Below, one piece after another: positions 9,547 through 24,649 of a DNA stretch of 64,000 bases (the first letter of the stretch is position 1; each line of letters begins with the position of its first letter). The notes below the pieces were generated by a model that did no database searches, was not told the DNA's origin, and saw nothing but the letters and a program-made list of their open reading frames with translations. The translations under genes and the position numbers were made by a program. The DNA comes from Collinsella aerofaciens (GTDB lineage Bacteria; Actinomycetota; Coriobacteriia; Coriobacteriales; Coriobacteriaceae), in assembly GCF_015670795.1 (NCBI RefSeq), contig NZ_JADPCJ010000006.1, positions 1 through 64,000 of the forward strand, given 5' to 3'.

Positions 9547-11913
9547 CTATCTCATTTCAAACATAAATAATGTCTCTATTGTTCCGCCGTTTGACCATGT
9601 TTGAACATTTGCTCCATCTCTTGCCATTGCAAGTCTAACGTTTAAGTATTCATTTGCTTCAGCTAGTTGTACGGTGAATCCATTTTTATGTTTTGATAGC
9701 TTCCAATGCTGAAGATTTGAACCGGTATATGTTGCCTGCGAAACGTTTGCGCCGTCCTTGACAGCTTCTGCTGTTAGCGCCTTTTTGGAGTGTACAAAAA
9801 TAAATGTGTATGTTCCGTCTCCCTGTCTTCTAAGATCAACTGATTGATTTGGGGAATTGTAGTCAGTCCAAATTTGAGCATTTGCAAAATCATCTTGGGA
9901 CGCCAAGCGAATGTCGATTGTTTTTGTCGTGTCAAGTTTGGTTTTTATGGCGTACCTACCGTTTGGAAGTGCATCGAGTTCAGTTGGAATAAGATTAAAG
10001 ATTGTTTCGGACACACCGCCATTTGACCAAGTTTGAATATTTGTGCCGTTTCTTGTGTCGGCTCTTCTAACATTTAGCCACTGGTTCCCTGCTTTATTTT
10101 TTATTGTATATCCTGCCCCCATTCGTTCGACAACCCATCTCTGTAGATCGGAACCATCTAAACTTGACTGACTAACATTCGATCCATCACGATTTGATTC
10201 AGCAGACATCGCTTTTCCTGAATGAACGAACGTAATAAGATAGGTGCCGTCATTTTGGAATTGGAGGTTGACCTTTTGTTGTCTGCCGCCATGATCTTGC
10301 CAGAGCTGTACATTCGCCCTATCGTTCTTCGACTCCATGCGAACGTCTAGGGCTTTTGATTGGTCGAGGCATGAGTATATGGAATACATTCCGTTGGGCA
10401 AAACCGGTGTAGCGGCTGGTTTGATTTGCAAGAACTTTGCCGTGAATTTGAACGTAGCAATCCAAGTAGTGCTGGTTTGTGTAGTGACTATTGATGCCGC
10501 TTTTAGCTCTGCCTGTTCAATTTCGGTCTTCCACTCTCTCAGATTCATCGCGTACGCAACAATCCCGTTCTGAATCCCCGAGATGCTCGGCGGGAACGAC
10601 TGGTTGTCAGCATCGATGGAAAAGCTCTCTTCCTTGGCATCCAGATGCTCCTGAATTCGGTCGGCATACTTCCCTGCCCATTCGTCTGCCTTGCCATTTC
10701 GCACAAAGTAATTGTTGGATAGGTCGGTCGAGCGGTAGGCGTAGTCGTCCATCTGGTAATTTGCCGTGTGATCGGAGTGGGCGATTGCCATGAGCTCGTC
10801 GGTCAGGCCAAAGTAAAGATGGCGCTGGTCCAGGTCTCCGTACCAGTTGTCGCTGGTATCGTCCCAGGTTAGGTCCATCTGGCACCATTTGCCGTCGATC
10901 TTTACGGCGTTCCAGGTGTGGCCGTTGCCGGTGATGCGGCCGTTGGCGATGCCCGCTGCGTCAAGGAGCTTGGAGTAGATGCGCTGGTAGCTCTCGCAGG
11001 TGCCCTGGTGGCGCGTGAGGCCGCTTTCGGCCGAGCACCAGTTGAGGCTGTGGTCGTACTCCAGCTGGTCGAGCGTCCAGTCGTGGAGCCACAGCGCCAT
11101 GTCGTATTCCGAGCCGTTTGTCTGCTGCCTGCACAGGTCCGCGGCGTCGTTGACGATCTGCGTGACGCTTGGGCGGGCGGCGTCGTTTACTGTTACCTCC
11201 GCCGTGGTGCGCAGGTAGTAGATCCCCTTGTCGTTTTGGGGGTCGTATCTGTCGTTGTCCATAAAGTAGAAGTAGATGCGGTACGTGCCCGATGCCGTGA
11301 AGTCAAAGGTAAAGTCGTGGCCCGCGGTGCCCAGGCTGCAGTAGCTGGCCCATGCTGGGCGCGACGGGTCGCAGACGCTTTCATGGCTACCGCCGTCCCA
11401 GTAGGTGGGCACGTCCATGCGCGCCTTGGCCTGGGACGAGCCGTTGGTTTGGGTTACGTGGAAGGTCGTCGCGGTGCCCGCGGGGGCGTCGTTCCACGAG
11501 ACGGTAAAGGTGACGCCGTTTTGGGTTGCGGTGGCGGAGTGGGCGTAGGTGGTTTGTGACGTGGTGGAGATGGCAGTGGGGGTGGGGTTGGCTTGGGCTC
11601 GGAGGGATGGGGTGGGGGTGCCGGTTGCGGCGGTGGTGCCTGTTGCGGTGGCGTTGCCGTCAGCGCTTTCCGTGTTGGCTGCGCTGGTGTCGATGAATGT
11701 TGCGGTGCTGTCCTCTGCGGTACCTGTTGTCGCATTTGTGTTGGTGCCGTCTTCAGTCTTGCCTGTGTCGCCGTTCGTGGCGTCGGCTTGTGCCTGCTGC
11801 TCGGCTGTTGCCTGAGGCTGGATGGCTTCCGCGATGGCCGCCATGGGCATCGTCGCGCTGAACATGGACGTGCACGCGATCGCACAGAGCAGGTAGTAAA
11901 GGGGTCGTTTCAT
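9547..11913 (-). CDS. Secreted transglutaminase-like protein with C-terminal ricin-type lectin repeats
   Basis: A 788-residue exported protein. The start at 11913 (MKRPLYYLL) has GAGAGG upstream and gives a clear signal peptide ending near residue 30 (AAIAEA); an earlier in-frame start lacks this. Residues about 35-125 are a low-complexity Ala/Thr linker. A transglutaminase/protease-like core follows with C306 (GTCESY), H332 (GHTWNAV) and D347 (QMDLTWDD), the expected catalytic triad. Residues about 505-788 form ricin-type beta-trefoil repeats with six QxW motifs (QLW, QRW, QTW, QIW, QHW, QTW). The lectin half is AT-rich and the first two thirds GC-rich, as if two sources were joined near residue 460. 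It may bind host or self glycans and process or cross-link proteins. No LPXTG anchor is seen. Confidence 0.85.
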   Translation of the reverse strand: MKRPLYYLLCAIACTSMFSATMPMAAIAEAIQPQATAEQQAQADATNGDTGKTEDGTNTNATTGTAEDSTATFIDTSAANTESADGNATATGTTAATGTPTPSLRAQANPTPTAISTTSQTTYAHSATATQNGVTFTVSWNDAPAGTATTFHVTQTNGSSQAKARMDVPTYWDGGSHESVCDPSRPAWASYCSLGTAGHDFTFDFTASGTYRIYFYFMDNDRYDPQNDKGIYYLRTTAEVTVNDAARPSVTQIVNDAADLCRQQTNGSEYDMALWLHDWTLDQLEYDHSLNWCSAESGLTRHQGTCESYQRIYSKLLDAAGIANGRITGNGHTWNAVKIDGKWCQMDLTWDDTSDNWYGDLDQRHLYFGLTDELMAIAHSDHTANYQMDDYAYRSTDLSNNYFVRNGKADEWAGKYADRIQEHLDAKEESFSIDADNQSFPPSISGIQNGIVAYAMNLREWKTEIEQAELKAASIVTTQTSTTWIATFKFTAKFLQIKPAATPVLPNGMYSIYSCLDQSKALDVRMESKNDRANVQLWQDHGGRQQKVNLQFQNDGTYLITFVHSGKAMSAESNRDGSNVSQSSLDGSDLQRWVVERMGAGYTIKNKAGNQWLNVRRADTRNGTNIQTWSNGGVSETIFNLIPTELDALPNGRYAIKTKLDTTKTIDIRLASQDDFANAQIWTDYNSPNQSVDLRRQGDGTYTFIFVHSKKALTAEAVKDGANVSQATYTGSNLQHWKLSKHKNGFTVQLAEANEYLNVRLAMARDGANVQTWSNGGTIETLFMFEMR

Positions 11914-12774
11914 AGCGGAGCCTCTCGGTGAGCAGCCAATAGGGTCCGAAGGCAGCTCCAGGCCAGCACTCCGCACATATTTTGTTGGGGATTATTTTAC
12001 GGGAACACCAGTCAACATCAGCGAACTTTCTGGGGGAATGTTGGGGTGGGGGAGAGGGAGCGGGCTCGCTTTAGTCCCCGGCGGCGTTCTGACCTGTGCT
12101 GGGTTGGCTATACGCGATGCTGAATCTTCAACATGAGGCCGTCTTGCGCCTCTTCGAGGCTCGGCACTGAGGCCTTCCAGGAAAAGTCTGCGAGGCTGCT
12201 GTCTAGTTTATTGCGGCTTACGACCGGGCAATAAGCGGGCGTCTCAACATGTTGGTCAAGCAAAATCTTTTGTTAATTTCGAACAGGTATTCGATGTGGA
12301 TGACTTTGTACCGGGCGAAAGCGATTGAGTCTAATTATGTTTTCATGCAGGTCAAGGGTGCTGTCTACAAGGGGATGAGCTGACTCGTAATTTCGCGTGA
12401 ATAAGTTCCGCATTATTTTAGCTGCGTTTACCTGTTAAAACACAACATCTTGTGCTCATCATCAAAAAAGAATACAGGATATGGAACTGGCGAAGGGCTA
12501 CAATTGAAACAACGAGAAGCGTCGTTTCCCCATTACAACCTAATTGTTCGGAAGGAGTCGGATGGAATAGTTGTCAAAATCGAGGCCATATTGATGGTCC
12601 ATTAAATTTCTTTAGGGGCGTGTGCGCTTATTGGTCAACAGCAGTATGCCCCCCCGTTTGTTCAAATCATTTCCAAATAGCTCTTCTTCAAGAACCTGAC
12701 ACTTGCGTGGCGGGGTGGGTTAGTTTGTAAAAAATGCGAAGGATGGCTTTTGGATTCTTGGAGGTGCGTAATTA
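11914..12774. other. 861-bp spacer without a convincing gene
   Basis: Holds the leader of the minus-strand transglutaminase gene on its left and the upstream region of the membrane/MBL pair on its right. The only sizeable open frame (12452-12730, GTG start) lacks a ribosome site, has no recognisable motif and an odd Trp/Cys-rich composition, so it is not called. No convincing promoter pair was found for either flanking gene. The stretch may contain decayed gene remnants. Confidence 0.5.
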
Positions 12775-13287
12775 TTGGCCAATAACTATCTAGATGATTT
12801 GCTTGGAAAAATCTCTGCTTACGATCTGTTCAATGTGCTCTTACCGGGTGCACTCGTAACATATTCCGTCAGTCAGATGCCGTTGGGCAGTTGTATCGAC
12901 TGCTCTAACTGGCTGGCACTATTTGTGATGAGTTATGTTCTCGGTCTTATTGCGTCGCGGATTGGCTCTCTTTGCATTGAACCGTTGGTCCGCAAACTAC
13001 AACCGACCGGAAAGCGGGACTATTCTGCCTTTGCATATGCTCAGAAACGCGATCCAAAGGTCGAGCAGCTCTTAATGATTTCAAATATGTATCGCAGCCT
13101 GGCGGGGGCCGGTGTCCTGCTCGTAATTATTCTGCTTGCATCATTGTTGCCGGAATCTCATCGGCTTCCAGCGGCGCTGTGCTCTTTTATCGCCTTATTT
13201 GTTGCCTCCTGGATCAAGCAGGAACGGTATGTAGAAAAACGAATCAACTTCAATCTTGAGGAGTGTGATAACCATGAGCGAGATTAA
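12775..13287 (+). CDS. Uncharacterised small membrane protein paired with an MBL-fold gene
   Basis: A 170-residue protein not assigned to a named family. It begins with an amphipathic stretch (LLGKISAYDLFNVLLPGALVTY), has two hydrophobic segments in the first 70 residues (about 17-32 and 45-63), a charged cytosol-like loop (PLVRKLQPTGKRDYSAF), then two more hydrophobic segments (about 110-126 and 130-146) and a charged tail, so about four membrane spans. TTG at 12775 is taken as start because GGAGGTG lies at 12759-12765. It overlaps the next gene by 14 bases, so the two are almost certainly co-translated. The compact spans, partner enzyme and accessory location suggest an effector or anchor of a defence-like pair; this is inference. 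Confidence 0.75.
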   Translation: MANNYLDDLLGKISAYDLFNVLLPGALVTYSVSQMPLGSCIDCSNWLALFVMSYVLGLIASRIGSLCIEPLVRKLQPTGKRDYSAFAYAQKRDPKVEQLLMISNMYRSLAGAGVLLVIILLASLLPESHRLPAALCSFIALFVASWIKQERYVEKRINFNLEECDNHERD

Positions 13288-14173
13288 GTCTCTGTCCGTT
13301 GATAACGGCGACATGTTTTATATCAATCACAATACTGATAACTTCAGCATGATTGACTGTAATATTACCGATGAGCGTAAGTCGGAAATCCTTGATGAGG
13401 TCAAAAACCTTGCAGGGAAAAAGGGCGTCGTTCGTTTTATCAGTACGCATCCGGACCAAGATCATATTCAGGGTATTGAGTATCTTGATGAGCTCGGGCT
13501 TATTAAGAATTTCTATTACGTTGACAATAATGTCTCCAAGTCCACGGAGACTGAGAGTTTCAAAAAGTATAAAGATCTGAAGGAGTCGTCGTGCGCTTAC
13601 AAAATATACAAGGGGTGTAAGCGCAAATGGATGAACGTTTCTGATGGTGAGCGCGGTTCTGCTGGGATTAGCGTCCTCTGGCCCGATGTGAATAATGAGA
13701 CCTTCCGGGATGCTTTGCGGGATGCCGAAAGCTCTGATAAACCCAATAATATTAGTCCTGCGATTGTCTACTCTCTTGATGAAGGGGTCCGTGCGCTTTG
13801 GCTTGGTGACATGGAGAATGACTACATGGAGGCGATCGAAGATGACATTGCGCTTTCGCCTGTGGACATTCTTTTTGCGCCGCATCATGGACGGAAGTCC
13901 GGTCGCGTTCCTAAGACATGGTTGGATAAGCTGGACCCTCGGTTGATCGTTGTGGGAAAAGCTCCGTCAGACGAGCTTGAGTATTACTCGAATTACAACA
14001 CTCTGACACAGAACAGCGCTGGCGATATTTTGTTCTGTTGCGAGGCCGGTAAGACTCACGTTTACGTTGGATCTCCTTCTTACAGTGTCAATTTTTTAGA
14101 CCGAGACCCTAATGCATCGGTTGTGAAGGGTTCGCTGTATTATTTGGGCTCTTTTGATTGCGGTGACCGTTAG
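13274..14173 (+). CDS. ComEC-like metallo-beta-lactamase-fold hydrolase
   Basis: A 299-residue MBL-fold protein. The metal ligands are visible: H59-x-D61-x-D63-H64 (STHPDQDH), D179 (LGDMEND) and H204-H205 (FAPHHGRKSG). The HxDxDH form and the HHG-x-K-S-G segment are those of the ComEC/Rec2 MBL domain, which acts on nucleic acid or phosphodiester substrates, rather than of beta-lactamases. ATG at 13274 is preferred, with GAGGAG at 13258-13263 in the end of the upstream gene. The protein has no membrane segment or signal peptide and so would act in the cytosol, perhaps docked to its membrane partner. The DNA is lower in GC than the core genes. The substrate is unknown; nuclease, cyclic-nucleotide and small-molecule hydrolase are all possible. 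Confidence 0.82.
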   Translation: MSEIKSLSVDNGDMFYINHNTDNFSMIDCNITDERKSEILDEVKNLAGKKGVVRFISTHPDQDHIQGIEYLDELGLIKNFYYVDNNVSKSTETESFKKYKDLKESSCAYKIYKGCKRKWMNVSDGERGSAGISVLWPDVNNETFRDALRDAESSDKPNNISPAIVYSLDEGVRALWLGDMENDYMEAIEDDIALSPVDILFAPHHGRKSGRVPKTWLDKLDPRLIVVGKAPSDELEYYSNYNTLTQNSAGDILFCCEAGKTHVYVGSPSYSVNFLDRDPNASVVKGSLYYLGSFDCGDR

Positions 14174-14300
14174 TCCTGCTGTCGTCTCGTTCATTCGTGG
14201 CCTGCCCACGCTTTTACCGGACAGGCCTAGATGCGTCCTTTCATTTCATTGAGATGGTGTAGGATATTGTCCTGTAATACAAAAGCTCTGCGGAGCTTTA

Positions 14301-14338
14301 AGGGTGACGCTTTCTGTTAGAGAGTGTTGCCCTTTTTT
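14301..14338 (+). terminator. Intrinsic terminator after the membrane/MBL pair
   Basis: A 14-base stem with several G-T pairs, left arm AGGGTGACGCTTTC (14301-14314) and right arm GAGAGTGTTGCCCT (14320-14333), runs directly into six T bases. A second small hairpin (AAAGCTC, 14282-14288, with GAGCTTT, 14293-14299) lies just before it. It closes the two-gene unit and separates it from the ATPase/RloB unit. Confidence 0.75.
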
Positions 14339-14445
14339 CATGCATGTAATGTGCGACGTGCTAGCTAAACGCCATTCCGGCAATGGGATGGTCGAGTATG
14401 GTCGGTTTGGCACCTTACGCCTGCTGTCATTGGTGTAGTAAGCAC

Positions 14446-14473
14446 TTGATTAAGACTACTTAAAGTCTATAAT
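14446..14473 (+). promoter_or_regulatory. Sigma-70-type promoter of the ATPase/RloB pair with an overlapping inverted repeat
   Basis: The -35 TTGATT (14446-14451) and the perfect -10 TATAAT (14468-14473) are 16 bases apart. An imperfect inverted repeat fills the spacer and both edges (14448-14474, core AGACT at 14453-14457 and AGTCT at 14464-14468), a placement expected for a repressor operator. The rest of the spacer from 14174 to 14521 holds the upstream terminator and no gene. Confidence 0.7.
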
Positions 14474-14521
14474 CAAAGAAAAACTCTGATATATCTTTTC
14501 AAAATAATGAAAGGAATGTTG

Positions 14522-15745
14522 ATGACGATGCTTTGCCAGTTCACCTTCAGGAACTATAGATCCTATCGCGATGAGGCGGAGCTTTCCATGCAGGCGACGC
14601 CGATGAAGGAGTTTGAGCGTTCCCTCATAGAGTGTTCCGACGGGCAGAGTTTCCTTCCGGTGGCTGCGGTGTACGGGCCCAACGCTGGCGGCAAGTCTAA
14701 TCTGCTCGAGGCTCTTGACTACGTTCGTTCGGCGGTAGCCAGACCAATTAGATTGCTGTCTGCCAGCGCTGATACACCAGAGGGTGATCGCCCTTTGATA
14801 GCCCGTTGTTCGGCGTTTGAGTTCGATGACGTGTCTGCTGCCGAGCCCACCGAGTTCGAGCTCTATTACCGCGCGGGCGAGCATGAGTACCGCTATGTTT
14901 TGTCTGTACACGCCGATGAGATCGTGTCCGAAGGGCTGTGGCGGCGTAAATTGGGAGCGTCGCGCACGGCGATGCTGTTCGAGCGCGAGGATACAAAGGT
15001 TGAACTCGGCCCCACACTGCGTAAGCTTGTGACGGCTGCGAGGTTCAACCCGAGCCTGCCGTACCTATCGTTCCTTTGCATCAACTTCGATGCTCCGGTG
15101 GTCCAGGAGGCGGCCAACTGGTTTCTCGACACTGTGTTTCTCAACTACAACAGTTCCTACCTGGAGCGGATGCTCGAGCAAATGCTCGACGAGGGCGACT
15201 CGCGCGAGGTCACGCGTTTTTTGCGCGCCGTTGATGTGCGTATTGATGGCTTCAGAGTGGAAAGGGCGCCGGAGTGGCGCGGCCAGCGCGTCTTCGTGAG
15301 GCACGAGGTGGGCGGCAAGTCATACGAGCTGCGTTTATCCGAGGAATCTGCCGGAACCCAGAAGCTTATGGGGTTGGCTGCGTATCTGATGACAGCGCTT
15401 GAACGTGGTGGCACCGTTGTGGTAGACGAGCTCGACGCCAAACTGCACCCGAAGCTTCTTCGCTATGTGATTCTGTTGTTTAAGGATCCTGAGGTCAACA
15501 AGAATGGCGCGCAGCTCATCTTCTCGTCCCAGGATGTGTCAACCATGCGAAACGATGTGTTCCGCCGTGACGAGATATGGTTCGCTGCGCGCGGCGAGGG
15601 GGAGGCGAGCCAACTGTGGTCTCTCGCCGACATCCACGAGGCAAACGGTAATCTGGTAAGCAAGAACGCGGCTTTCGACAAGCAATACCTGTCCGGTCGC
15701 TACGGCGCCGATCCGTATCTCACCCGCATCGAGGAGTGGGATTAG
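14522..15745 (+). CDS. AAA ATPase of the RloA/AbiLi/OLD type
   Basis: A 407-residue ABC/SMC-like ATPase of the AAA_15/21 group. It starts with the RecF-like LCQFTFRNYRSYRDEAEL, then Walker A GPNAGGKSN (about residue 55), the signature LSEESAGTQKL, Walker B TVVVDELDAKLHP, and a D-loop. The switch-histidine position reads LIFSSQDVSTM, with Gln where relatives usually have His. No nuclease domain is fused; the following gene supplies one. ATG at 14522 is preferred over in-frame ATGs at 14507 and 14516 because AAGGA lies at 14511-14515. With RloB it resembles AbiL-type abortive infection and split OLD nucleases. The role in phage defence is inferred from family and pairing. Confidence 0.85.
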   Translation: MTMLCQFTFRNYRSYRDEAELSMQATPMKEFERSLIECSDGQSFLPVAAVYGPNAGGKSNLLEALDYVRSAVARPIRLLSASADTPEGDRPLIARCSAFEFDDVSAAEPTEFELYYRAGEHEYRYVLSVHADEIVSEGLWRRKLGASRTAMLFEREDTKVELGPTLRKLVTAARFNPSLPYLSFLCINFDAPVVQEAANWFLDTVFLNYNSSYLERMLEQMLDEGDSREVTRFLRAVDVRIDGFRVERAPEWRGQRVFVRHEVGGKSYELRLSEESAGTQKLMGLAAYLMTALERGGTVVVDELDAKLHPKLLRYVILLFKDPEVNKNGAQLIFSSQDVSTMRNDVFRRDEIWFAARGEGEASQLWSLADIHEANGNLVSKNAAFDKQYLSGRYGADPYLTRIEEWD

Positions 15746-15746
15746 C

Positions 15747-16415
15747 ATGGTGGCGAAGAAGCCGAAGGGCTGGCGTAGCGGCAAGCGAGGGGGCCGCTCG
15801 CGCATGGTTCAGATGACGCGTCATCTTGTAGTGAGCGAGGGCAAGGAGACCGAGCCTCGCTACTTTGAGGGTATGCGTGCGGCGTTGGGCGCGGCTAACG
15901 AGCGTAAGGTTGCCATTGTCGTTAAGGGAACCGGCAAACACACGCTTGACCTGCTTGACTTCGCCGTCGAACACTGTCGCTATGCGCCCGAGACGTTCGA
16001 CCATGTGTGGCTCGTGTATGACAAGGATGACTTCCCTGCGTCCGACTTTGACGCGATGGAGCGCAAATGCACCGAGCTCTCCGATGAATCGAGGACCTTC
16101 CACGCGTTGTGGTCGAACCCCTGCTTCGAGCTGTGGCCGCTTTTGCACTTTCGTTATACGTCTGCCCCCATGTCGGCCGCGGAGTGTCAGCGCGCCCTTG
16201 CTCAGGCGATGTCTAAGGACTTGGGCATCGAGTACCGCAAGAACTTGGGCGGGCTGTTCGAAGCAGTGGACGATAAACGGGGCGAGGCACTTCAGCGTGC
16301 TGGGCGCCTCGATACGCACCATAGGGAGCTGGGTAACCTCAAGCCCTCTTTGCAAAATCCCGCAACCAAGGTGGGCGAAATTTTCGATGTAATCGGGCCG
16401 TATCTGGTTGGCTAG
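15747..16415 (+). CDS. RloB family protein (AbiLii-like, Toprim-like nuclease partner)
   Basis: A 222-residue RloB-family protein. A basic N-terminus leads to a Toprim-like pattern: a conserved Glu in VVSEGKETEPRYFEG, then an acidic pair in HVWLVYDKDDFP, and the family segment SNPCFELWPLLHF. Toprim folds cleave or nick DNA with these acidic residues and magnesium. The start codon is one base after the ATPase stop, so the two proteins are made together, as in OLD and Gabija-type systems where the same two activities act jointly. The pairing is the strongest evidence for function; the target and trigger are unknown. No third component is seen downstream. Confidence 0.82.
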   Translation: MVAKKPKGWRSGKRGGRSRMVQMTRHLVVSEGKETEPRYFEGMRAALGAANERKVAIVVKGTGKHTLDLLDFAVEHCRYAPETFDHVWLVYDKDDFPASDFDAMERKCTELSDESRTFHALWSNPCFELWPLLHFRYTSAPMSAAECQRALAQAMSKDLGIEYRKNLGGLFEAVDDKRGEALQRAGRLDTHHRELGNLKPSLQNPATKVGEIFDVIGPYLVG

Positions 16416-16759
16416 GCGAGTCGCTGGATTGGCTTTCCGGTTAGTGCGATTGGCGGATTGTACTGCGCTATTGCGAGTCCGGTGCGTAGGAGAAGTGCGG
16501 GGAAAATCGAAACTCGCCGAGCGCACATCGATTTTTGCCAACAAAACTGCAGGTCGCGGATGCCCAAAACAGGGGACTGTTTGACAGATCTCGGTTTTTC
16601 ACCGTACCCCCGATTGGGTGCGCATTTAGCACCCTCGATGTCCCCACATTCCCTAAAAAAGTTCTTAAAACAGCCTTAAAGACGTTTCAGCTCGCGTTGA
16701 CAGCGTAAAATACGCATGTTTGACTATGTCTAAAGTGGATTTTAGGGGGGGAGTGCGCC
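16416..16759. other. 344-bp spacer upstream of the pel operon
   Basis: No gene is supported. It ends in an A/T-rich stretch with TAAAAAAGTTCTT (16656-16668) and TTGACA at 16697-16702, which is a good -35 box, but no -10 at normal spacing was convincing. The promoter of the operon is probably here. The TAAAAAAGTTCTT string recurs just upstream of the tRNA-Asn promoter (about 50164-50176), where it may act as an upstream AT element. GGGGGGAG before 16760 is the ribosome site. Confidence 0.45.
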
Positions 16760-18898
16760 ATGGAGGTGCTGGTTGTTGGCAACACCGCATATGTTGACGA
16801 TGACTTTTGTGCCAAGGCGTTCCCCGGGGACCATGTCCAGGTCGTCGCTGCCGCGGAAGCGCGCCGCGACGAGTCATCGCCCCATGCCTCGTGGAAAGAG
16901 CTTCTGCAACACCTGGATCAGGCCTACGAGTTCGACCGCGTGGTCTACCTATCCAATTACCTTACCCCGCATACCGATACCGTGGGCGATATCGAGCTGC
17001 TGCGTTCGGTCTTTCGCGCGTGCATGGGTCGCCGGGTCCAACTGCTGTATGTAGCGGGGCCCGCGGGTGCCGAGGGCGCCGCCGATGCCGCGGGGCGAAC
17101 GGGCAAGGGCATTATCGCGCACGCAGCCAACGACCTGTGCCGCTACTACGCTGCTCGCGAGGGCGTTCAGACCAAGATTCTGCGCGTGCCGTTCCTGTAT
17201 ACCGCGTCTGCCGCGCTGGAGGACCCGTTTTTGGTGCCGTTGTTCGACGCGTGCTCAACCGGATCGGTCGCTCTGCAGGGCGCGCAGGATGCGGCGTTTC
17301 CCCTGCTGTGTGCCGAGGAGCTTGCGGTGCTGGTACGCCGTATCTTCGATAGCTGGGATGGTAACTTTGAGACGCTCGACGTAGCCGATACCTTCCATCA
17401 CACGGCGGGTGAGGTGGGCGACGCCCTCAAGGCGCTGTTCCCCGGCCTTGCCGTTGCCTATGGCGATTCTGCCGGCTACGCCCTGCCCGCCAGCGACGTC
17501 GCTCGCGTGCGCTATGGCTGGTTTCAGCGCTATGACTTGCTGCGCGATCTCTCGACCATTCAAGCGCGTTGGGATGCTGGCCGCGCAAAGAAGGTCAACC
17601 CCTTGCGCGCCGCCATCGACCGCATCCAGATGCGCACGCTGCCTATTAAATGCCTAGAGACGGGCGTTGCCTGGGTTCTGTTCGAGGTACTGGAGCATCT
17701 GTTCTCACAATCGGTCCAGCTCAACGTGCTCGATTATCGCCTGCTCTACGTGGTGCTGATCGGCACGCTGTATGGCTTGGACTTTGGCCTGGTTGCGGCG
17801 CTGCTGGCGTCGGTGGGTTTGGCAGCCAGCTACTTTACTCAGTACGGCTATACCTTCCAGGGTCTGTTCTACGAGCCGTCCAACTGGCTACCGTTTATTG
17901 CGTACTTTGTGGTGGGTGCCGTGTGCGGCTATGTGCAGCTGCGCAACAGCGAAGCCATTAGGGCGGAGCGCGATCAAAACGAGCTCGTGCGCAACCGCAA
18001 TACGTTCCTTACGCAGCTCTACCACGACGCGATCGAGGACAAGCGCGCGTACAGGCGCCAGATCGTGGGTCGCCACGACAGCTTTGGCAAGATCTTTGCC
18101 GTGACGCAGGAGCTCGACGTACTCAACCCTCGCGACATCTATCGCAAGTGCTGCGAGCTTCTGGGCGAGATCCTCGAGAACGATTCGGTGGCGATCTACC
18201 ATGTTTCGGGCGGGGCATTTGCACGCCTGGTGGCAGCAAGTCCTGCGATTGCCGAAGATGCCGCACGCTCACTCACGCTTGAGCAGCTTGCACCTCTTTT
18301 GGGTGACGGGGGTCGTTCGAACCTGTGGGTGAACCGCGAGCTGACGCCGGGGCTTCCCATGTTTGGATACACGATCGAGCGCGACGGGGCACCCGCCGTG
18401 TTGATCTTTGTGCGTCGTGCGGCCGAAAACCAAATGACCCTCTATTATCAAAACCTGTTTCGCATCTTGTGCGGGCTGGTCGAAAGCGCGCTGGGCCGTG
18501 CCTTTGATTATGAGGCGGTGGCGCAGGATAAACGCTGCGTTGACGGCACTTGCGTGCTCAAGCAGGTGGCCTTTGGCCAAGAGCTCGCGGCGGAGCAGGC
18601 GCTGGCAGATAGCAAGATGGGGAGTTTTTTGCTCCTGCGCGTGGTACCGGGCATGGAGCCTGTCGGCGAGCTGGTGGGCGCAATCGGGTCGGCAATCCGC
18701 GAGAGCGACGCGGCGGGCTTGGTCGACGGCGACGTGCTCTACCTGCTTATGCGCCAGGCAAAGGCGTGCGATCTGCCCATTATCCGCGAGCGCCTGAGCG
18801 CAAAGCAGATTGCGGTGGAGCCCGTCGATGGCGAGGACATCGTGGCGCTGTTGCAGCACATCTCTTACACCGGTGACGGTGAGGGGGGTGCCGCTTGA
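16760..18898 (+). CDS. pelD: PelD-like c-di-GMP receptor with N-terminal SDR-like domain
   Basis: A 712-residue inner-membrane regulator of Pel-type exopolysaccharide synthesis. Residues 1-270 resemble an extended SDR/epimerase fold, but the nucleotide-binding loop is degenerate (VVGNTAYVDDD) and the YxxxK site seems replaced (KGIIAHAAND, about 116-124), so this part is probably not catalytic. Four membrane segments follow (about 297-395), then a GAF domain (about 440-590) and a degenerate GGDEF domain. Its active-site motif is DGDVL (656-660), while an RxxD I-site, R647-E-S-D650, stands five residues before it, as in c-di-GMP-binding PelD proteins. It should bind c-di-GMP and switch on the PelF/PelG machinery. 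It heads an operon of overlapping genes. Confidence 0.85.
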   Translation: MEVLVVGNTAYVDDDFCAKAFPGDHVQVVAAAEARRDESSPHASWKELLQHLDQAYEFDRVVYLSNYLTPHTDTVGDIELLRSVFRACMGRRVQLLYVAGPAGAEGAADAAGRTGKGIIAHAANDLCRYYAAREGVQTKILRVPFLYTASAALEDPFLVPLFDACSTGSVALQGAQDAAFPLLCAEELAVLVRRIFDSWDGNFETLDVADTFHHTAGEVGDALKALFPGLAVAYGDSAGYALPASDVARVRYGWFQRYDLLRDLSTIQARWDAGRAKKVNPLRAAIDRIQMRTLPIKCLETGVAWVLFEVLEHLFSQSVQLNVLDYRLLYVVLIGTLYGLDFGLVAALLASVGLAASYFTQYGYTFQGLFYEPSNWLPFIAYFVVGAVCGYVQLRNSEAIRAERDQNELVRNRNTFLTQLYHDAIEDKRAYRRQIVGRHDSFGKIFAVTQELDVLNPRDIYRKCCELLGEILENDSVAIYHVSGGAFARLVAASPAIAEDAARSLTLEQLAPLLGDGGRSNLWVNRELTPGLPMFGYTIERDGAPAVLIFVRRAAENQMTLYYQNLFRILCGLVESALGRAFDYEAVAQDKRCVDGTCVLKQVAFGQELAAEQALADSKMGSFLLLRVVPGMEPVGELVGAIGSAIRESDAAGLVDGDVLYLLMRQAKACDLPIIRERLSAKQIAVEPVDGEDIVALLQHISYTGDGEGGAA

Positions 18899-19800
18899 TC
18901 TCGCTTGTCGTTGCTGCCGTCTTGCTGCTGATTCATGCGCTGGTTTGCCTGATGCTGTGGACGCTCATGAAGCTGGGCCTGCTGCCGGTGCGCGGGCACA
19001 TGTTGGCTGTGATAGTGCTGGTGCCGCTGTGGGGCCCGTTGCTGGTGGTTCTGCTATCGGCCCGCAGCGCGGTGTTTGGCGAGGGGCTGAAAGAGTCTGC
19101 GCTGGAGTCGCTGCGCTTCAACGACGACCTACATCGCAGCATCCTGGTGCACGACCGTGACGCCGATGCAGGCGTAGTGCCGCTCGAGGAGGCGCTCATC
19201 GTCAACGATCCGGCATGCCGGCGCCGCCTAATGCTCTCCATGCTCACCGAGGAGCCCGACGCGTACCTGGCGCAGCTGCAGGCGGCTAAGCTTAACGACG
19301 ACGTTGAGGTGGCGCACTATGCCGCGACGGCGGTGGCGCAGATCTCCAAGGAGTCCGACCTTAAACTGCAGCAGCTGGAGCGCGCCTTTAAGACGGACCC
19401 GAGCTCGCAAAACCTCAACGAATACTGCGATTTTCTTGGTGAATACTTGGGCTCGGGCTTGGCCGAGGGGCGCGTGGCTCAGATTCAGCGCCAACAGTAC
19501 GCGCGCCTGCTTGCGCGTCGCTGCGAGCGCGAGGACACCTTTGAGCTGCGCATTCGATATGCGACGGCGCTGGCCGATGTCGGACAGATTGACGAGGCGC
19601 AGGCCGTGATCGACCAGCTGGTGCTCGACGTGCCCGAGGAGCAGGAGGTTTGGATGCTTTGCCTGCGCCTGGCCGTGATGCGCCGCGATGGTGACGAGGT
19701 CCACCGTGTGATCGATGCGATTGACAAGCAACATGTATATTTGAGCGCCGACAACCGCGAAAAGTTGGCGTTTTGGCGCGACGGGGAGGAGGCCAGATGA
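18895..19800 (+). CDS. pelE: PelE-like membrane-anchored TPR protein
   Basis: A 301-residue protein with two membrane segments near the N-terminus (about 2-28 and 36-57) followed by an all-helical region with TPR-like repeats (about 75-295), the PelE layout. In Pel systems it links PelD and the transport complex. The TTG start shares bases with the PelD stop (TTGA), behind GAGGGGGG. Sequence conservation is low, and the assignment rests on architecture plus position between pelD and the deacetylase gene. Confidence 0.75.
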   Translation: MISLVVAAVLLLIHALVCLMLWTLMKLGLLPVRGHMLAVIVLVPLWGPLLVVLLSARSAVFGEGLKESALESLRFNDDLHRSILVHDRDADAGVVPLEEALIVNDPACRRRLMLSMLTEEPDAYLAQLQAAKLNDDVEVAHYAATAVAQISKESDLKLQQLERAFKTDPSSQNLNEYCDFLGEYLGSGLAEGRVAQIQRQQYARLLARRCEREDTFELRIRYATALADVGQIDEAQAVIDQLVLDVPEEQEVWMLCLRLAVMRRDGDEVHRVIDAIDKQHVYLSADNREKLAFWRDGEEAR

Positions 19801-21677
19801 GCGTGGCGCAACATATCCGCGACCGTGCAGGGCGCTTTCGTTGGATGGGACTCCTCGTGGTGTGGGCGGTCTTTATTGTCATGGCCGCCGTGCTGCTGGT
19901 GGAGCGTGCCGGCGTGCAGTACGGTGCGGGCCAGCATAAGCTGGGGATGCTTGCCGCCAACGATGCGGTGCCGGCCTCCTCGGCGATGTTTGGTCAAAAG
20001 CCCACGTGCCTGGTCATTTCCGATTCCGATCAAGCTGGCGTCGAGGACGTAAAGGAGCAGTTCGACCAGATCCTGCTTGACATGAAGATCGCGCACCGCG
20101 ACGTGGATCTTGCCCTGGACGGCGCGGATGCCATTCCCTCGCTGACGTCCTTCGATCGCGTGATTTTGCTCATGCCGTCGCTCGATGGGCTCGGTACGCA
20201 CCTGAGCGACATTATGAGTTGGATGAGTGCCGGCGGTTCGCTTATGCTCGCGATGCCGCCGGATAACTCGAGCTATCTGCAAGTGATTGCCTCCAAGCTT
20301 GGGATCGAATCGGCCGGATATGACTATGCGACAGCCGAAAGCATCGTGCCGAGCGAGGACTTTATGCTGGGCGGGGGAGAGCGCTACGAGCTCTCGGACC
20401 CCTTTGATTCGTCGCTTTCGGTTTCGCTGCGCGAGACGGCTCGTGTGTGGGCTAAGACCGGCGATGCGGGTGTCCCGCTCATTTGGTCGAATGACTGCGG
20501 TAGCGGGCGCACCGTGGTATGCAACATTGGTATCTACGACAAGGTCATGCGTGGCTTTTACGCCGCGGCGATCAGCCTGCTGGGTGATGCCACGGCCTAT
20601 CCGGTCATCAACAGCGCCGTGTTCTATTTGGACGACTTTCCTAGCCCCGTGCCCTCGGGTGATGGTACTTATATCAAGCGTGATTACGGCCTTTCCATTG
20701 CCGATTTTTACACCAAGGTCTGGTGGCCCGATCTGCAAAAGCTCGCGCAAAAATACGGCATTCGCTATACCGGCGTGATGATCGAAAACTACGAGGACGC
20801 GGTCAACCAGACTGAGCCCGCGCGCCAACCCGATACCACGCAGTTCCGCTATTTTGGCGGCATGCTGCTGCAGATGGGCGGAGAGCTGGGCTTTCATGGC
20901 TACAACCATCAGCCTCTGGCGCTCTGGGACACCGACTATGGCACGCTGTACGACTACAAGACGTGGAAGAACGAGGAGACGCTTGTCGCTTCGCTTAACG
21001 AACTTATCGCGTTTCAAGACGAGGTCCTGCCCAACGCTCATGGCTCGGTTTACGTGCCGCCGTCAAATATCCTTTCGGCCCGCGCGCGCAAGCTTATCGG
21101 TACCGATGTTCCGCGCATTAAGACCATTGCCAGTACGTATTTTGAGGATGGCACCGACCTGCCGTATGTGCAGGAGTTTGGCGTGGCGAGCGATGGCATT
21201 GTGGAGCAGCCACGTATTGTTTCGGGCGGCATGGTCGACGATTCCTATATGCGCCTGGCAGCCGTGTCCGAGCTCAACATGCACTACGTGAGCACGCACT
21301 TTATGCACCCGGACGATCTGCTCGATCCCGATCGCGGCGCCAGGCAAGGCTGGGAGGTCTACAAGGGCGGCCTGACCGACTACCTGGACTGGCTTACCAG
21401 GTCTGCGCCCGACCTGCGTCGCCAGACCGGCTCGGAATGCTCTGGTGCTATCCAGCGCTTTTCGTCCGTGACGGTGAGCGTGGATACCAGCGCGGATGCC
21501 TGGACGCTTAGTCTGGGCAATTTCTACGACGAAGCGTGGCTCATGTTCCGTGCCAACAACGGCGAGGCGGGTGCAGTCTCGGGTGGCGATATTACGCATC
21601 TGACGGGCGACCTGTGCCTGGTCAAAGCCACGGACAAGACGGTGACCATTGCGCGCAAGGAGGGTAGCGACAAATGA
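19797..21677 (+). CDS. DUF2194 protein, PelA-type polysaccharide deacetylase homologue
   Basis: A 626-residue exported protein: one N-terminal membrane anchor (about 17-40), then an extracytoplasmic region. The middle holds a flavodoxin-like part and from about residue 280 a carbohydrate-esterase-4-like part (AVFYLDDFPSPV, with the Asp pair; ELGFHGYNHQPL, with the His pair), the usual metal-site pattern of deacetylases. This matches the stand-alone PelA deacetylase proteins of Gram-positive Pel loci, which lack the hydrolase half of the Pseudomonas enzyme. ATG at 19797 overlaps the PelE stop (ATGA) behind GGGGAGGAGG. It should de-N-acetylate the exported polymer and give it positive charge. 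Confidence 0.82.
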   Translation: MSVAQHIRDRAGRFRWMGLLVVWAVFIVMAAVLLVERAGVQYGAGQHKLGMLAANDAVPASSAMFGQKPTCLVISDSDQAGVEDVKEQFDQILLDMKIAHRDVDLALDGADAIPSLTSFDRVILLMPSLDGLGTHLSDIMSWMSAGGSLMLAMPPDNSSYLQVIASKLGIESAGYDYATAESIVPSEDFMLGGGERYELSDPFDSSLSVSLRETARVWAKTGDAGVPLIWSNDCGSGRTVVCNIGIYDKVMRGFYAAAISLLGDATAYPVINSAVFYLDDFPSPVPSGDGTYIKRDYGLSIADFYTKVWWPDLQKLAQKYGIRYTGVMIENYEDAVNQTEPARQPDTTQFRYFGGMLLQMGGELGFHGYNHQPLALWDTDYGTLYDYKTWKNEETLVASLNELIAFQDEVLPNAHGSVYVPPSNILSARARKLIGTDVPRIKTIASTYFEDGTDLPYVQEFGVASDGIVEQPRIVSGGMVDDSYMRLAAVSELNMHYVSTHFMHPDDLLDPDRGARQGWEVYKGGLTDYLDWLTRSAPDLRRQTGSECSGAIQRFSSVTVSVDTSADAWTLSLGNFYDEAWLMFRANNGEAGAVSGGDITHLTGDLCLVKATDKTVTIARKEGSDK

Positions 21678-23101
21678 GAATCTGCTTGGTACTCGAGGGT
21701 TGCTACCCCTATGTGCACGGCGGCGTGTCTACCTGGATGCACGGCTACATTACGGCTATGCCCGAGCACGAGTTTGTGCTGTGGGTGATCGGCGCGCATG
21801 CTGCCGACCGTGGCAAGTTTGTCTACGAGCTGCCCGGCAACGTGGTCGAGGTGCACGAGGTGTTCCTGGACGATGCCCTGCGGCTTTCGGGCGAGCAGCA
21901 CGAAGCCAGTTTTAACGACCGCGAGCGCGAGGCGCTACGCCGTCTGGTGTCGCTCTCCAATCCGGACTGGGACGTGCTGTTCGATATCTTTCAGCGCCGT
22001 CGCGTGCATCCGCTCTCGTTTTTGCAGAGCCGAACGTTTATGGACATCTTCCGCGACGTGTGCCTTGCCGAGTACCCCTACACGCCCTTTGCCGACGCAT
22101 TCCACACCATGCGCTCTATGCTGTTGCCGGTGCTCTACCTGCTGGGCAGCGAGGTGCCGGTTGCCGATGTGTACCACGCTATCTCGACCGGCTACGGCGG
22201 CCTGCTCGCCTGTCTGGGCTCAAGCGTTCACCATGCGCCGGTGCTGCTCACCGAGCACGGCATCTATACCCGCGAGCGCGAGGAAGAGATCATTCGCGCC
22301 GATTGGGTGGTGCCGTCATTTAAGGACCGCTGGATTCGCTTTTTCTACCTGCTTTCGGAGGAGATCTACCGCCGCGCCTTCCGCGTGACGAGTTTGTTCC
22401 ATAACGCCCGCAAGACGCAGATTGATATGGGCTGTGATGCGGACAAATGCCTGGTTATCCCCAACGGCATCCAGTTCGATCGCTTTAAGGATATTCCCTT
22501 AAAGCCCGATGATGGCTGGGTGGATATTGGCGCAGTGGTGCGCTTGGCGCCCATCAAGGACGTCAAGACCATGATCTATGCCTTCTTTGAGCTGCACGAG
22601 CGCCTGCCTAAGGTGCGCCTGCACATCATGGGCGGCGTGGACGACGAAGAGTACGGCGCCGAGTGCCACGCGCTGGTCGATACCCTGGGCGTGCGCGACC
22701 TGATCTTTACCGGTCGCGTCAACGTGGTCGAGTACATGGAAAAGCTCGACTTTACCATTTTGACGAGCATCTCCGAGGGCCAGCCGCTCAGCGTGCTGGA
22801 GTCGCTTGCAGCGCGCCGTCCCTGCGTGACGACCGAGGTGGGCTGCTGCCGCGAGCTACTCGAAGGCGCCCCGGGCGACGACTTTGACGTGGCGGGTTTT
22901 GTGACGCCGCCTATGTATCGCAAGGGCTTGGCCGATGCCATGGAACGCATGTGCACAAGCCGCGCCCGCCGTATCGAGATGGGGGAGCGCGGCCAGCGCC
23001 GCGTTGCCACGTACTTTTTGCACGAGCAGATGCTCACCAACTATCGCGCACTGTACGACGAGACGGCGTGTGCGTTTAACCTGCCCAGAGAGGGGGAGTA
23101 G
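21674..23101 (+). CDS. pelF: PelF-like glycosyltransferase (GT4)
   Basis: A 475-residue cytoplasmic GT-B transferase. The N-terminal EGCYPYVHGGVSTWMHGYI is the hallmark of PelF, and the donor-binding end has TSISEGQPLSVLESLAARRP with the E-x7-E type pair, plus NGIQFDRF and a VVRLAPIKDVKTMIYAF segment. PelF polymerises the sugar chain from UDP-sugars together with PelG. The gene overlaps the deacetylase gene by four bases. Length matches the family. Assignment is strong, being supported by the diagnostic N-terminus and by pelG next door. Confidence 0.92.
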   Translation: MRICLVLEGCYPYVHGGVSTWMHGYITAMPEHEFVLWVIGAHAADRGKFVYELPGNVVEVHEVFLDDALRLSGEQHEASFNDREREALRRLVSLSNPDWDVLFDIFQRRRVHPLSFLQSRTFMDIFRDVCLAEYPYTPFADAFHTMRSMLLPVLYLLGSEVPVADVYHAISTGYGGLLACLGSSVHHAPVLLTEHGIYTREREEEIIRADWVVPSFKDRWIRFFYLLSEEIYRRAFRVTSLFHNARKTQIDMGCDADKCLVIPNGIQFDRFKDIPLKPDDGWVDIGAVVRLAPIKDVKTMIYAFFELHERLPKVRLHIMGGVDDEEYGAECHALVDTLGVRDLIFTGRVNVVEYMEKLDFTILTSISEGQPLSVLESLAARRPCVTTEVGCCRELLEGAPGDDFDVAGFVTPPMYRKGLADAMERMCTSRARRIEMGERGQRRVATYFLHEQMLTNYRALYDETACAFNLPREGE

Positions 23102-23104
23102 CCG

Positions 23105-24649
23105 GTGGCCGGAATCGGTTTTGAGCTCAAGCGCCTGTTTAGGCGTAAGGGTCTGTTTGCCACGATGCGCGCCTATGGCTACGCCGGCATTGTGTGTACG
23201 GGCCCCATGCTGCTGGGCGTGCTGCTCCAGGTGGGTATCTTGGTGCTGTGCGGTCTGTGGGGTGTGGGCCGTGCCAACCAAGATCTGCTGGTGTGCATGG
23301 TGACCTATACGCTGCTGGCGTCGCTCACGCTCACGAGTTTTTTCTCTATGCCGGTCACGCGCTTTTTGGCCGATATGCTTTTTGCCGAGCGCGAGGATGA
23401 GATCCTACCTTCGTTTTGGGGCTCCAACGCCATTATGCTCGTTGCGGGCACGGTGCTCTACGGCGTCTTTTTGCTGTTCTCGGGCGCCACGCTGCTGCAG
23501 GGGCTGCTGTGCCTGTGGCTGTTCAACATTATGATCGTCAACTGGAACGGCATGAGTTACCTCACGGCCATCAAGGATTACCGCGGTATCCTGTGCAGCT
23601 TTGCGGCTGCCATTGGCGTGGCGTGCCTGTGCGCCCTGGCCGCGCTGGCGCTGGGACTGCCGCCGGTCGAGGGCCTGTTGGCATCAATTGCTCTGGGCTA
23701 CGGCGTCATGCTCGCCTGGGACGTGGTGCTGCTGTACCGGTATTTTCCGCAGAGCGATCGCAGCCCCTGGCTCTATTTACGGTGGCTTGATCAGTTTATG
23801 CCGCTGGCGCTCACGGGCTTGTTTACCAACCTGGGCCTCTTTGCGCACTTGGTGATAATATGGGCCGGTCCCATTGGTGTGCAGGTCAAGGGCTTGTTTT
23901 ATGGTGCGCCCTACCACGATGTGCCGGCGCTCATCGCGTTTTTGACGATCCTGGTCACGTCCGTCAACTTTGTGGTCTCGGTCGAGGTCAACTTTTATCC
24001 GCGCTACCGCGACTACTACAGCCTGTTCAACGACGGTGGCGTGGTGGGCGACATTGTGGTGGCCGAGGAGGAAATGCTTGCCACGCTCAACCGAGAACTG
24101 CGTTTTTGTGCGCTCAAGCAACTGTTTGTGACGGCGGCGGTCATCTCGCTCGAGACCACGGTGCTGTCGGCCCTACCGTTGGGCTTTAACAACCTGATGC
24201 ACGGGTATTTCCGCACGTTATGCGTGGGCTATGGCCTGTATGCCGTGGGCAACACGATCCTGCTGATCTTGCTGTACTTTACCGACTACAAGGGGGCCGT
24301 GCTGGCTTCGCGACTGTTTGCCGGTGTGGCCGGGCTGGCGACTGCCGTTTCTCTGCTCTTGCCGCAGCAGTTTTACGGCTTTGGCTTTTTGTTGGGTGCA
24401 GCGGTGTTTTTTATCGTGGCGCTGCTGCGGCTCGATACCTATACCGCCAATTTGCCGTATCGTATCCTGAGCCAGCAGCCCATTGTGGCGACCGTCAAAA
24501 CGGGCTGGTTTACACAGCTGGGCCGCTTGCTCGACCGTGCCGAACAGCGCTATGAGGAAGGTCGCCATAAGGGTGAGCCACATGGCGCGTTTGAGCGCGC
24601 AGTAGTTCACGTGTATCGCAAGCATTGGGGAGGTTCTGATGACCGATAG
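23105..24649 (+). CDS. pelG: PelG-like polysaccharide transporter
   Basis: A 514-residue membrane protein with about twelve spans. It opens with MAGIGFELKRLF, the conserved PelG start, and belongs to the polysaccharide transporter superfamily. It moves the growing Pel chain across the membrane with PelF, PelD and PelE. The start is GTG three bases after the pelF stop, behind GAGGGGGAG. The C-terminal 50 residues are charged and probably cytosolic (RAEQRYEEGRHKGEPHG). Its end overlaps the cotH-like start by eleven bases. Confidence 0.9.
   Translation: MAGIGFELKRLFRRKGLFATMRAYGYAGIVCTGPMLLGVLLQVGILVLCGLWGVGRANQDLLVCMVTYTLLASLTLTSFFSMPVTRFLADMLFAEREDEILPSFWGSNAIMLVAGTVLYGVFLLFSGATLLQGLLCLWLFNIMIVNWNGMSYLTAIKDYRGILCSFAAAIGVACLCALAALALGLPPVEGLLASIALGYGVMLAWDVVLLYRYFPQSDRSPWLYLRWLDQFMPLALTGLFTNLGLFAHLVIIWAGPIGVQVKGLFYGAPYHDVPALIAFLTILVTSVNFVVSVEVNFYPRYRDYYSLFNDGGVVGDIVVAEEEMLATLNRELRFCALKQLFVTAAVISLETTVLSALPLGFNNLMHGYFRTLCVGYGLYAVGNTILLILLYFTDYKGAVLASRLFAGVAGLATAVSLLLPQQFYGFGFLLGAAVFFIVALLRLDTYTANLPYRILSQQPIVATVKTGWFTQLGRLLDRAEQRYEEGRHKGEPHGAFERAVVHVYRKHWGGSDDR

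What the first reader, a model, noticed from the sequence alone, without database searches (positions are those of the whole stretch)
14446..16415. Compact AAA ATPase/RloB pair with its own promoter and an operator-like repeat
The ATPase has intact Walker A and B, and the RloB protein has the Glu and DKD acidic residues of a Toprim-like site. Together they look like an AbiL-type or split OLD/Gabija-like anti-phage system. A strong -10/-35 pair overlaps an inverted repeat, so the unit is likely repressed until needed. The switch-histidine position of the ATPase reads Gln (SSQD), which may change the coupling of ATP hydrolysis.
Basis: partly seen in the sequence, partly recalled or inferred. Interest (0 to 1): 0.6.

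Follow-up and report, generated by a model that had tools for sequence, protein, structure and literature searches.

The report
AbiL-type phage-defence pair, glutamine-switch variant
A gut Collinsella genome carries a known kind of two-gene phage-defence unit (an ATP-driven sensor plus a probable nucleic-acid-cutting partner), and it belongs to a small lineage in which a normally invariant ATP-site histidine has been replaced for good by glutamine.

Summary
The two genes are real and are an AbiL-type pair. The ATPase (14507-15745, probable true start 14528) matches PADLOC AbiLi at 4e-83. The second protein (15747-16415) matches AbiLii at 1e-21 and Pfam RloB at 1e-33. The ATPase is an ABC-type (Rad50/SMC/PtuA-like) ATPase, not AAA+. 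RloB has a conserved Toprim-like acidic site (E31, D92, D94) and weak, register-correct similarity to OLD Toprim domains. All intact members of one Coriobacteriia clade (about 55-98% identity, three families) have Gln at position 342; every other RloB-paired ATPase I could read has His. The change arose once in that clade, is fixed, and sits in genes under purifying selection. Its effect on ATP hydrolysis is untested, and published precedents point both ways. The -35/-10 promoter is conserved across the clade; the inverted repeat over it is not, and no regulator gene was found nearby, so 'operator' is unsupported. The pair sits next to candidate system PDC-M48, in a defence hotspot upstream of the Pel operon, where related genomes carry AbiD, AbiH, PDC-M12, PDC-S20 or a retron. 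Overall: a lineage variant of a known system, of moderate interest.

The parts
14446..14473 (+). sigma-70-type promoter, -35 TTGATT, 16-nt spacer, -10 TATAAT
   Evidence: recurs at the same place in nearly all clade members
14446..14476 (.). inverted repeat with one bulge; present here but not conserved in relatives, so probably not an operator
14507..15745 (+). AbiLi/RloA-type ABC ATPase, 412 aa as listed; probable true start ATG at 14528 (M-L-C-Q is where relatives begin), 405 aa
14675..14698 (+). Walker A GPNAGGKS
15335..15361 (+). ABC-type signature LSEESAGTQ (core ES.GT nearly invariant)
15416..15430 (+). Walker B VVVDE
15530..15532 (+). switch (H-loop) codon CAG, Gln342; His in all other RloB-paired ATPases readable here
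15747..16415 (+). RloB/AbiLii-type Toprim-like putative nuclease, 222 aa; starts 1 nt after the ATPase stop codon
15837..15839 (+). RloB Glu31 in EGxxTEPxYF, conserved acidic residue
16020..16028 (+). RloB D92-K-D94, conserved acidic pair (D92 invariant in 79 sequences)
16128..16130 (+). RloB Glu128 in PCFExW, invariant in 79 sequences

Best explanation
This is an AbiL-type (RloA/RloB) abortive-infection module that works much like PARIS. The ABC ATPase forms a homo-oligomer that holds the RloB Toprim-like nuclease inactive. A phage-made trigger changes the ATPase, RloB is released and becomes active, and metal-dependent cleavage of a cellular nucleic acid (possibly tRNA, as for AriB) stops growth and phage replication. 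In this lineage the switch His is replaced by Gln, which probably slows or retunes ATP turnover without abolishing ATP binding, so that the ATP-bound clamp is the resting or sensing state. Shown here: family membership, the strict gene pair, conserved active-site residues, fold class of the ATPase, selection on both genes, the fixed Gln, and the defence-hotspot context. Inferred: oligomer and sequestration, trigger, substrate, and effect of Gln.
For: PADLOC AbiLi 4.3e-83 and AbiLii 1.3e-21; Pfam AAA_21 8.7e-27 and RloB 9.8e-34, both above gathering score. Of 172 RloB-profile ORFs in fetched loci, 166 have the ATPase directly upstream. ATPase model pLDDT 87.7; best solved matches Rad50 (Z 20.4), SMC heads, Septu PtuA (Z 18) and retron PtuA. 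RloB model pLDDT 89.8; OLD Toprim domain 6nk8 among its matches, Z 6.6. Profile comparison RloB to OLD Toprim E 8e-4, aligning E31 and D92/D94 with the Toprim Glu and DxD; 20 column-shuffled controls gave E 0.3 or worse. dN/dS about 0.04-0.2 for both genes where dS could be estimated. Neighbour PDC-M48A/B, and the same site carries AbiD, AbiH, PDC-M12, PDC-S20 or a retron in related genomes. Published: F. nucleatum AbiLii is toxic in E. coli (PMC3985639); a C. algidicarnis RloB-type toxin was validated as a toxin-antitoxin pair with its ATPase (PMC10440598); PARIS sequestration and tRNA cleavage (PMC11455837, PMC12409363).
Against: No phage assay for this clade. The RloB-Toprim fold match is weak: Foldseek has no hit at E <= 0.001, Z 6.6 is in the noise range, and unrelated lumazine synthases score as high. 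In F. nucleatum, AbiLi did not neutralise AbiLii (PMC3985639), which speaks against simple sequestration in every member. Lactococcal AbiLii was not toxic in E. coli in the same study. RloB has no AriB (DUF4435) match.
Confidence: 0.7

Rival explanations
1. Same AbiL module, but the Gln switch is functionally neutral: Gln donates the same hydrogen bond as His and the ATPase hydrolyses normally. The substitution is a lineage marker without consequence.
For: In MRP1 NBS2, H-loop mutants lose transport except Gln and Asn, which keep wild-type-like activity (PMC7756269). Walker A, Walker B Glu and signature are all intact in the clade (one MAG copy has a Walker B Asp change), unlike truly degenerate sites, where the Walker B Glu is usually lost too.
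Against: His is otherwise universal in the family, so the site is under strong constraint and the change was tolerated only once among RloB-paired ATPases. ABCB2/B3 (TAP), whose degenerate site binds but does not hydrolyse ATP (PMC12422388), is listed in PMC7756269 among transporters with H-loop deviations.
Confidence: 0.4
2. The ATPase does not sequester RloB; both are needed together and ATPase-bound RloB is the active nuclease (OLD- or Septu-like holoenzyme that cuts phage DNA).
For: OLD and GajA carry both domains in one chain (PMC10568477). PtuA, the ATPase of the PtuA-PtuB Septu complex, is among the ATPase's nearest solved folds. AbiLi of F. nucleatum showed no antitoxin activity (PMC3985639).
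Against: Some RloB-family toxins are toxic when expressed alone, and one is neutralised by its ATPase (PMC10440598).
Confidence: 0.25
3. An accessory of a type I restriction-modification operon (the context in which RloA/RloB were named), not a stand-alone system.
For: The RloB family has been seen in type I R-M operons (PMC10440598, citing earlier work).
Against: The pair has its own conserved promoter. The sampled neighbours are PDC-M48, Pel and polysaccharide genes, an IS and a transglutaminase-ricin protein. Relatives carry the pair in other contexts, including small plasmids.
Confidence: 0.03

Closest known systems
AbiL (AbiLi/AbiLii) of Lactococcus lactis; RloA/RloB
   Same: Gene order, both protein families, best PADLOC match for each protein.
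   Different: Only the Coriobacteriia clade has Gln at the switch. Profile coverage of AbiLii is partial (76 bits).
PARIS (AriA/AriB)
   Same: Two-gene ABC ATPase plus Toprim-like nuclease; AAA_21-type ATPase (AriA profile 8.6e-29).
   Different: The effector is RloB (PF13707), not DUF4435/AriB (PF14491 not matched).
OLD / Gabija (GajA)
   Same: ABC ATPase plus Toprim; weak profile similarity of RloB to OLD Toprim in the right register.
   Different: Separate genes, no UvrD-like helicase recognised next door, weak GajA profile score (4.6e-5).
Septu / retron PtuA ATPases
   Same: Among the nearest solved folds of the ATPase; their H-loop His aligns with position 342.
   Different: Partner is HNH PtuB, not RloB; His retained.
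PDC-M12 (PADLOC candidate; present in the same hotspot of L232 and L235)
   Same: Two-gene ATPase plus a partner protein that begins with a Toprim-like VEGAKRE motif.
   Different: Different protein families; the ATPase reads CSTHN, so His is retained.

Membership tests
AbiL / RloAB | AAA_21-type ATPase gene matching AbiLi | tested here: met
   PDLC02335 AbiLi 4.3e-83, 277 bits; PF13304 95 bits against cut-off 27
AbiL / RloAB | RloB/AbiLii gene directly downstream | tested here: met
   PF13707 117.7 bits against cut-off 31.5; PDLC02337 1.3e-21; 1-nt gap between genes
AbiL / RloAB | Abortive-infection phenotype | not testable with these tools
   needs phage assay
PARIS (AriA/AriB) | Toprim effector of the DUF4435 (AriB) family | tested here: not met
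   only Pfam match of the effector at E <= 0.01 is RloB; no DUF4435 match anywhere in G000
OLD / Gabija | ATPase and Toprim in one chain, with GajB helicase for Gabija | tested here: not met
   two separate ORFs; direct neighbours are PDC-M48B and a PelD-like DUF4118 protein
Toprim nucleases | conserved Glu and DxD metal-binding residues on a Toprim fold | tested here: inconclusive
   residues conserved in 79 sequences and aligned with OLD Toprim (E 8e-4); fold match weak
Canonical ABC-type (Rad50/SMC/PtuA) ATPase site | Walker A, Walker B, signature and H-loop His all present | tested here: not met
   first three present; His replaced by Gln342. Fold match to Rad50 and PtuA is strong, so it is an ABC-type fold with a non-canonical switch

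The most novel reading that the evidence does not exclude
In this clade the defence ATPase has become a slow or non-hydrolysing ATP-locked clamp through a fixed His-to-Gln switch, so phage sensing is coupled to ATP binding or ATP loss rather than to hydrolysis. If so, it is a natural experiment on whether ATP turnover is needed by ATPase/Toprim immunity.
Probability: 0.3. Interest if true: 0.5.

Novelty: new variant of a known kind. Interest (0 to 1): 0.35.

Why it matters
ATPase/Toprim pairs (AbiL, PARIS, OLD, Gabija, retrons) are widespread bacterial immune architectures, and the role of ATP hydrolysis differs between those studied (PMC10568477). A clade that replaced an otherwise universal catalytic histidine, yet keeps both genes under purifying selection, gives a clean single-residue test (Q342H against wild type) of whether turnover is needed for sensing or release. 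The Collinsella pel-upstream hotspot is also a compact place to look for new defence genes of gut Actinomycetota.

Tried and rejected
Operator: tested by conservation and shuffles, not supported; a second weak inverted repeat after the -10 (TCAGA...TCTGA) recurs in a few members, but single-sequence scores are mostly not above shuffles (best P 0.02). Shifted His: rejected; alignments place Gln342 exactly where all others have His. Sequence search of the PDB with RloB alone or as a profile: no meaningful hit. PH0156 (2p62, Z 8.6) tops the RloB fold list but is uncharacterised, and lumazine synthases score nearly as high, so no fold claim rests on it. A first attempt to collect OLD Toprim sequences by pattern got only 4 and an empty comparison; repeated by coordinates. 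A pattern scan for the switch in further plasmid ATPases printed nothing, so only L056 is claimed as a second Gln case. The first paper search returned unrelated hits because the term was read as a word start. Absence of AriA among the PDB profile hits is not evidence against relatedness. A literature search for a Collinsella defence hotspot found no paper on it.

Full report
What is there. The window lies in a genome of the Collinsella group: the nearest named relatives are C. aerofaciens strains whose ATPase is 92-98% identical. Two genes on the + strand, one nucleotide apart, encode a 412-residue ATPase (14507-15745) and a 222-residue RloB protein (15747-16415). Relatives begin at the M-L-C-Q motif, so the ATPase probably starts at 14528.

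Family. PADLOC's best models are AbiLi (4.3e-83) and AbiLii (1.3e-21). Pfam gives AAA_21 and RloB above their gathering scores. The RloB/AbiLii family is part of the lactococcal AbiL abortive-infection system and is found in type I restriction operons (PMC10440598). Despite the 'AAA' label, the predicted structure (pLDDT 87.7) is an ABC-type head: Rad50 Z 20.4, SMC heads about 18-19, Septu PtuA 18, retron PtuA 17-18. The ES.GT signature is invariant or nearly so across the family.

The partner. RloB is predicted with pLDDT 89.8. In 79 sequences D92, E128, H134, Y39 and Y163 are invariant and E31, E36, D94 and K165 are nearly so. The evidence for a Toprim site is moderate. Profile comparison with 27 Actinomycetota OLD Toprim domains gave E 8e-4 (hhalign probability only 25%) with E31 and D92/D94 in the Toprim register, against 0.3 or worse for 20 shuffled controls. 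The structural match to the B. pseudomallei OLD Toprim domain (Z 6.6) is within noise. The NetFlax authors reached the same assignment by HHpred.

The switch residue. Profile alignment of all ATPases in the fetched loci put His at the switch in 153 rows, Gln in 29 and a gap in 6. After removing duplicates, 102 distinct rows have His (rows were chosen by having His, so this is a count, not a test), and Gln342 is the sharpest clade-specific column. The Gln rows are all one clade of Coriobacteriia plus one distant plasmid ATPase; two more rows are damaged copies (L040/L014 and L042). On a tree of 51 ATPases the label needs two changes, one for the clade (SH-aLRT 99) and one for the plasmid copy (the switch column was left in when the tree was built). 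Within the clade, identity to the window falls to about 55%, and members lie in three families. Codons are CAG, once CAA. dN/dS is 0.04-0.2 for both genes where dS is not saturated. The Gln is therefore old, fixed and kept in working genes. Retron and Septu ATPases of known structure have His at the aligned place.

What Gln might do. Two published precedents differ. In MRP1, H-loop Gln and Asn mutants keep wild-type-like transport while others do not. In the ABCB2/B3 (TAP) heterodimer, H-loop deviation goes with loss of Walker B Glu in a site that binds but does not hydrolyse ATP (PMC7756269; PMC12422388). Here the Walker B Glu is kept, so slowed rather than lost hydrolysis is the more careful reading. 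This is untested.

Promoter and repeat. A -35/-10 pair with 16-17-nt spacing sits 54-72 nt before the ATPase start in nearly all clade members, including those at 55% protein identity whose upstream DNA otherwise shares little. That is good evidence for a promoter. The inverted repeat across it is perfect only in the window and close to perfect in one relative (L004). In others the inner arm has 1-4 of 5 pairs. I therefore reject the operator reading.

Context. Directly upstream lie two genes of candidate system PDC-M48, and directly downstream a Pel exopolysaccharide operon (PelG 1e-135, DUF3492/PelF, DUF2194, DUF4118). In related genomes the stretch just upstream of the PelD-like gene holds PDC-M48 with AbiD (L231), AbiH with PDC-M12 (L232), PDC-S20 with AbiD-like (L233), or a retron RT-protease with AbiL and PDC-M12 (L235). 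In one genome (L234) the only gene just upstream of the PelD-like gene is an apparent threonyl-tRNA synthetase, by its sequence. This is a defence hotspot. RloB relatives occur in 43 of 397 Coriobacteriia genomes. The 91%-identical copy in Hugonella (L037), outside the Collinsella family, points to transfer between families, and there the RloB gene has a stop codon at about residue 88 while the ATPase is open.

Mechanism. PARIS provides the best model: an AriA hexamer holds AriB, phage Ocr releases it, and AriB dimers cut tRNA (PMC11455837; PMC12409363). RloB-type toxins are toxic when expressed alone in some cases. Neutralisation by the ATPase was seen in one study (PMC10440598) and not in another (PMC3985639). 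Trigger, substrate and the effect of Gln342 are inferred or unknown.

Verdict. A real, complete AbiL-type module with a lineage-specific catalytic variant, in a defence hotspot. The family is known; the fixed Gln is the only part that would surprise a specialist.

Noticed in passing
window 12775-14173: Two-gene candidate defence system PDC-M48A/B (membrane protein plus metallo-beta-lactamase-fold protein; PADLOC 3e-44 and 2e-130) directly upstream, followed by a strong terminator-like hairpin at 14300-14334.
   Followed up: partly
window 16600-16760 and loci L229-L237: The stretch just upstream of the Pel operon is a defence hotspot in Collinsella: AbiD, AbiH, PDC-M12, PDC-S20, retron RT-protease XI, PDC-M48 or AbiL in different genomes; one genome has an apparent threonyl-tRNA synthetase as the only gene just before the PelD-like gene.
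   Followed up: partly
window 16760-24649: Pel-like exopolysaccharide operon (PelD-like DUF4118, TPR, DUF2194, DUF3492 glycosyltransferase, PelG).
   Followed up: partly
L056 1048-2820: Klebsiella ColRNAI plasmid ATPase related to AbiLi that also has Gln at the switch (AAVQDVNLM) and a 145-aa downstream partner without a Pfam match, not RloB.
   Followed up: partly
window 16492-16607 and 14242-14362: Intergenic stretches of about 110 nt that recur at other positions in related genomes (75-87% identity): probably a dispersed repeat.
   Followed up: no
L037 6241-6900; L040 5001-6600; L034/L006 ATPase: Damaged copies: a stop in RloB with intact ATPase (L037), stops in the ATPase and a shortened RloB (L040), Walker B Asp changed to Gly (L034/L006).
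   Followed up: no
window 9547-11976: Secreted-looking 809-aa protein on the minus strand with transglutaminase-like core and ricin-type lectin repeats.
   Followed up: no
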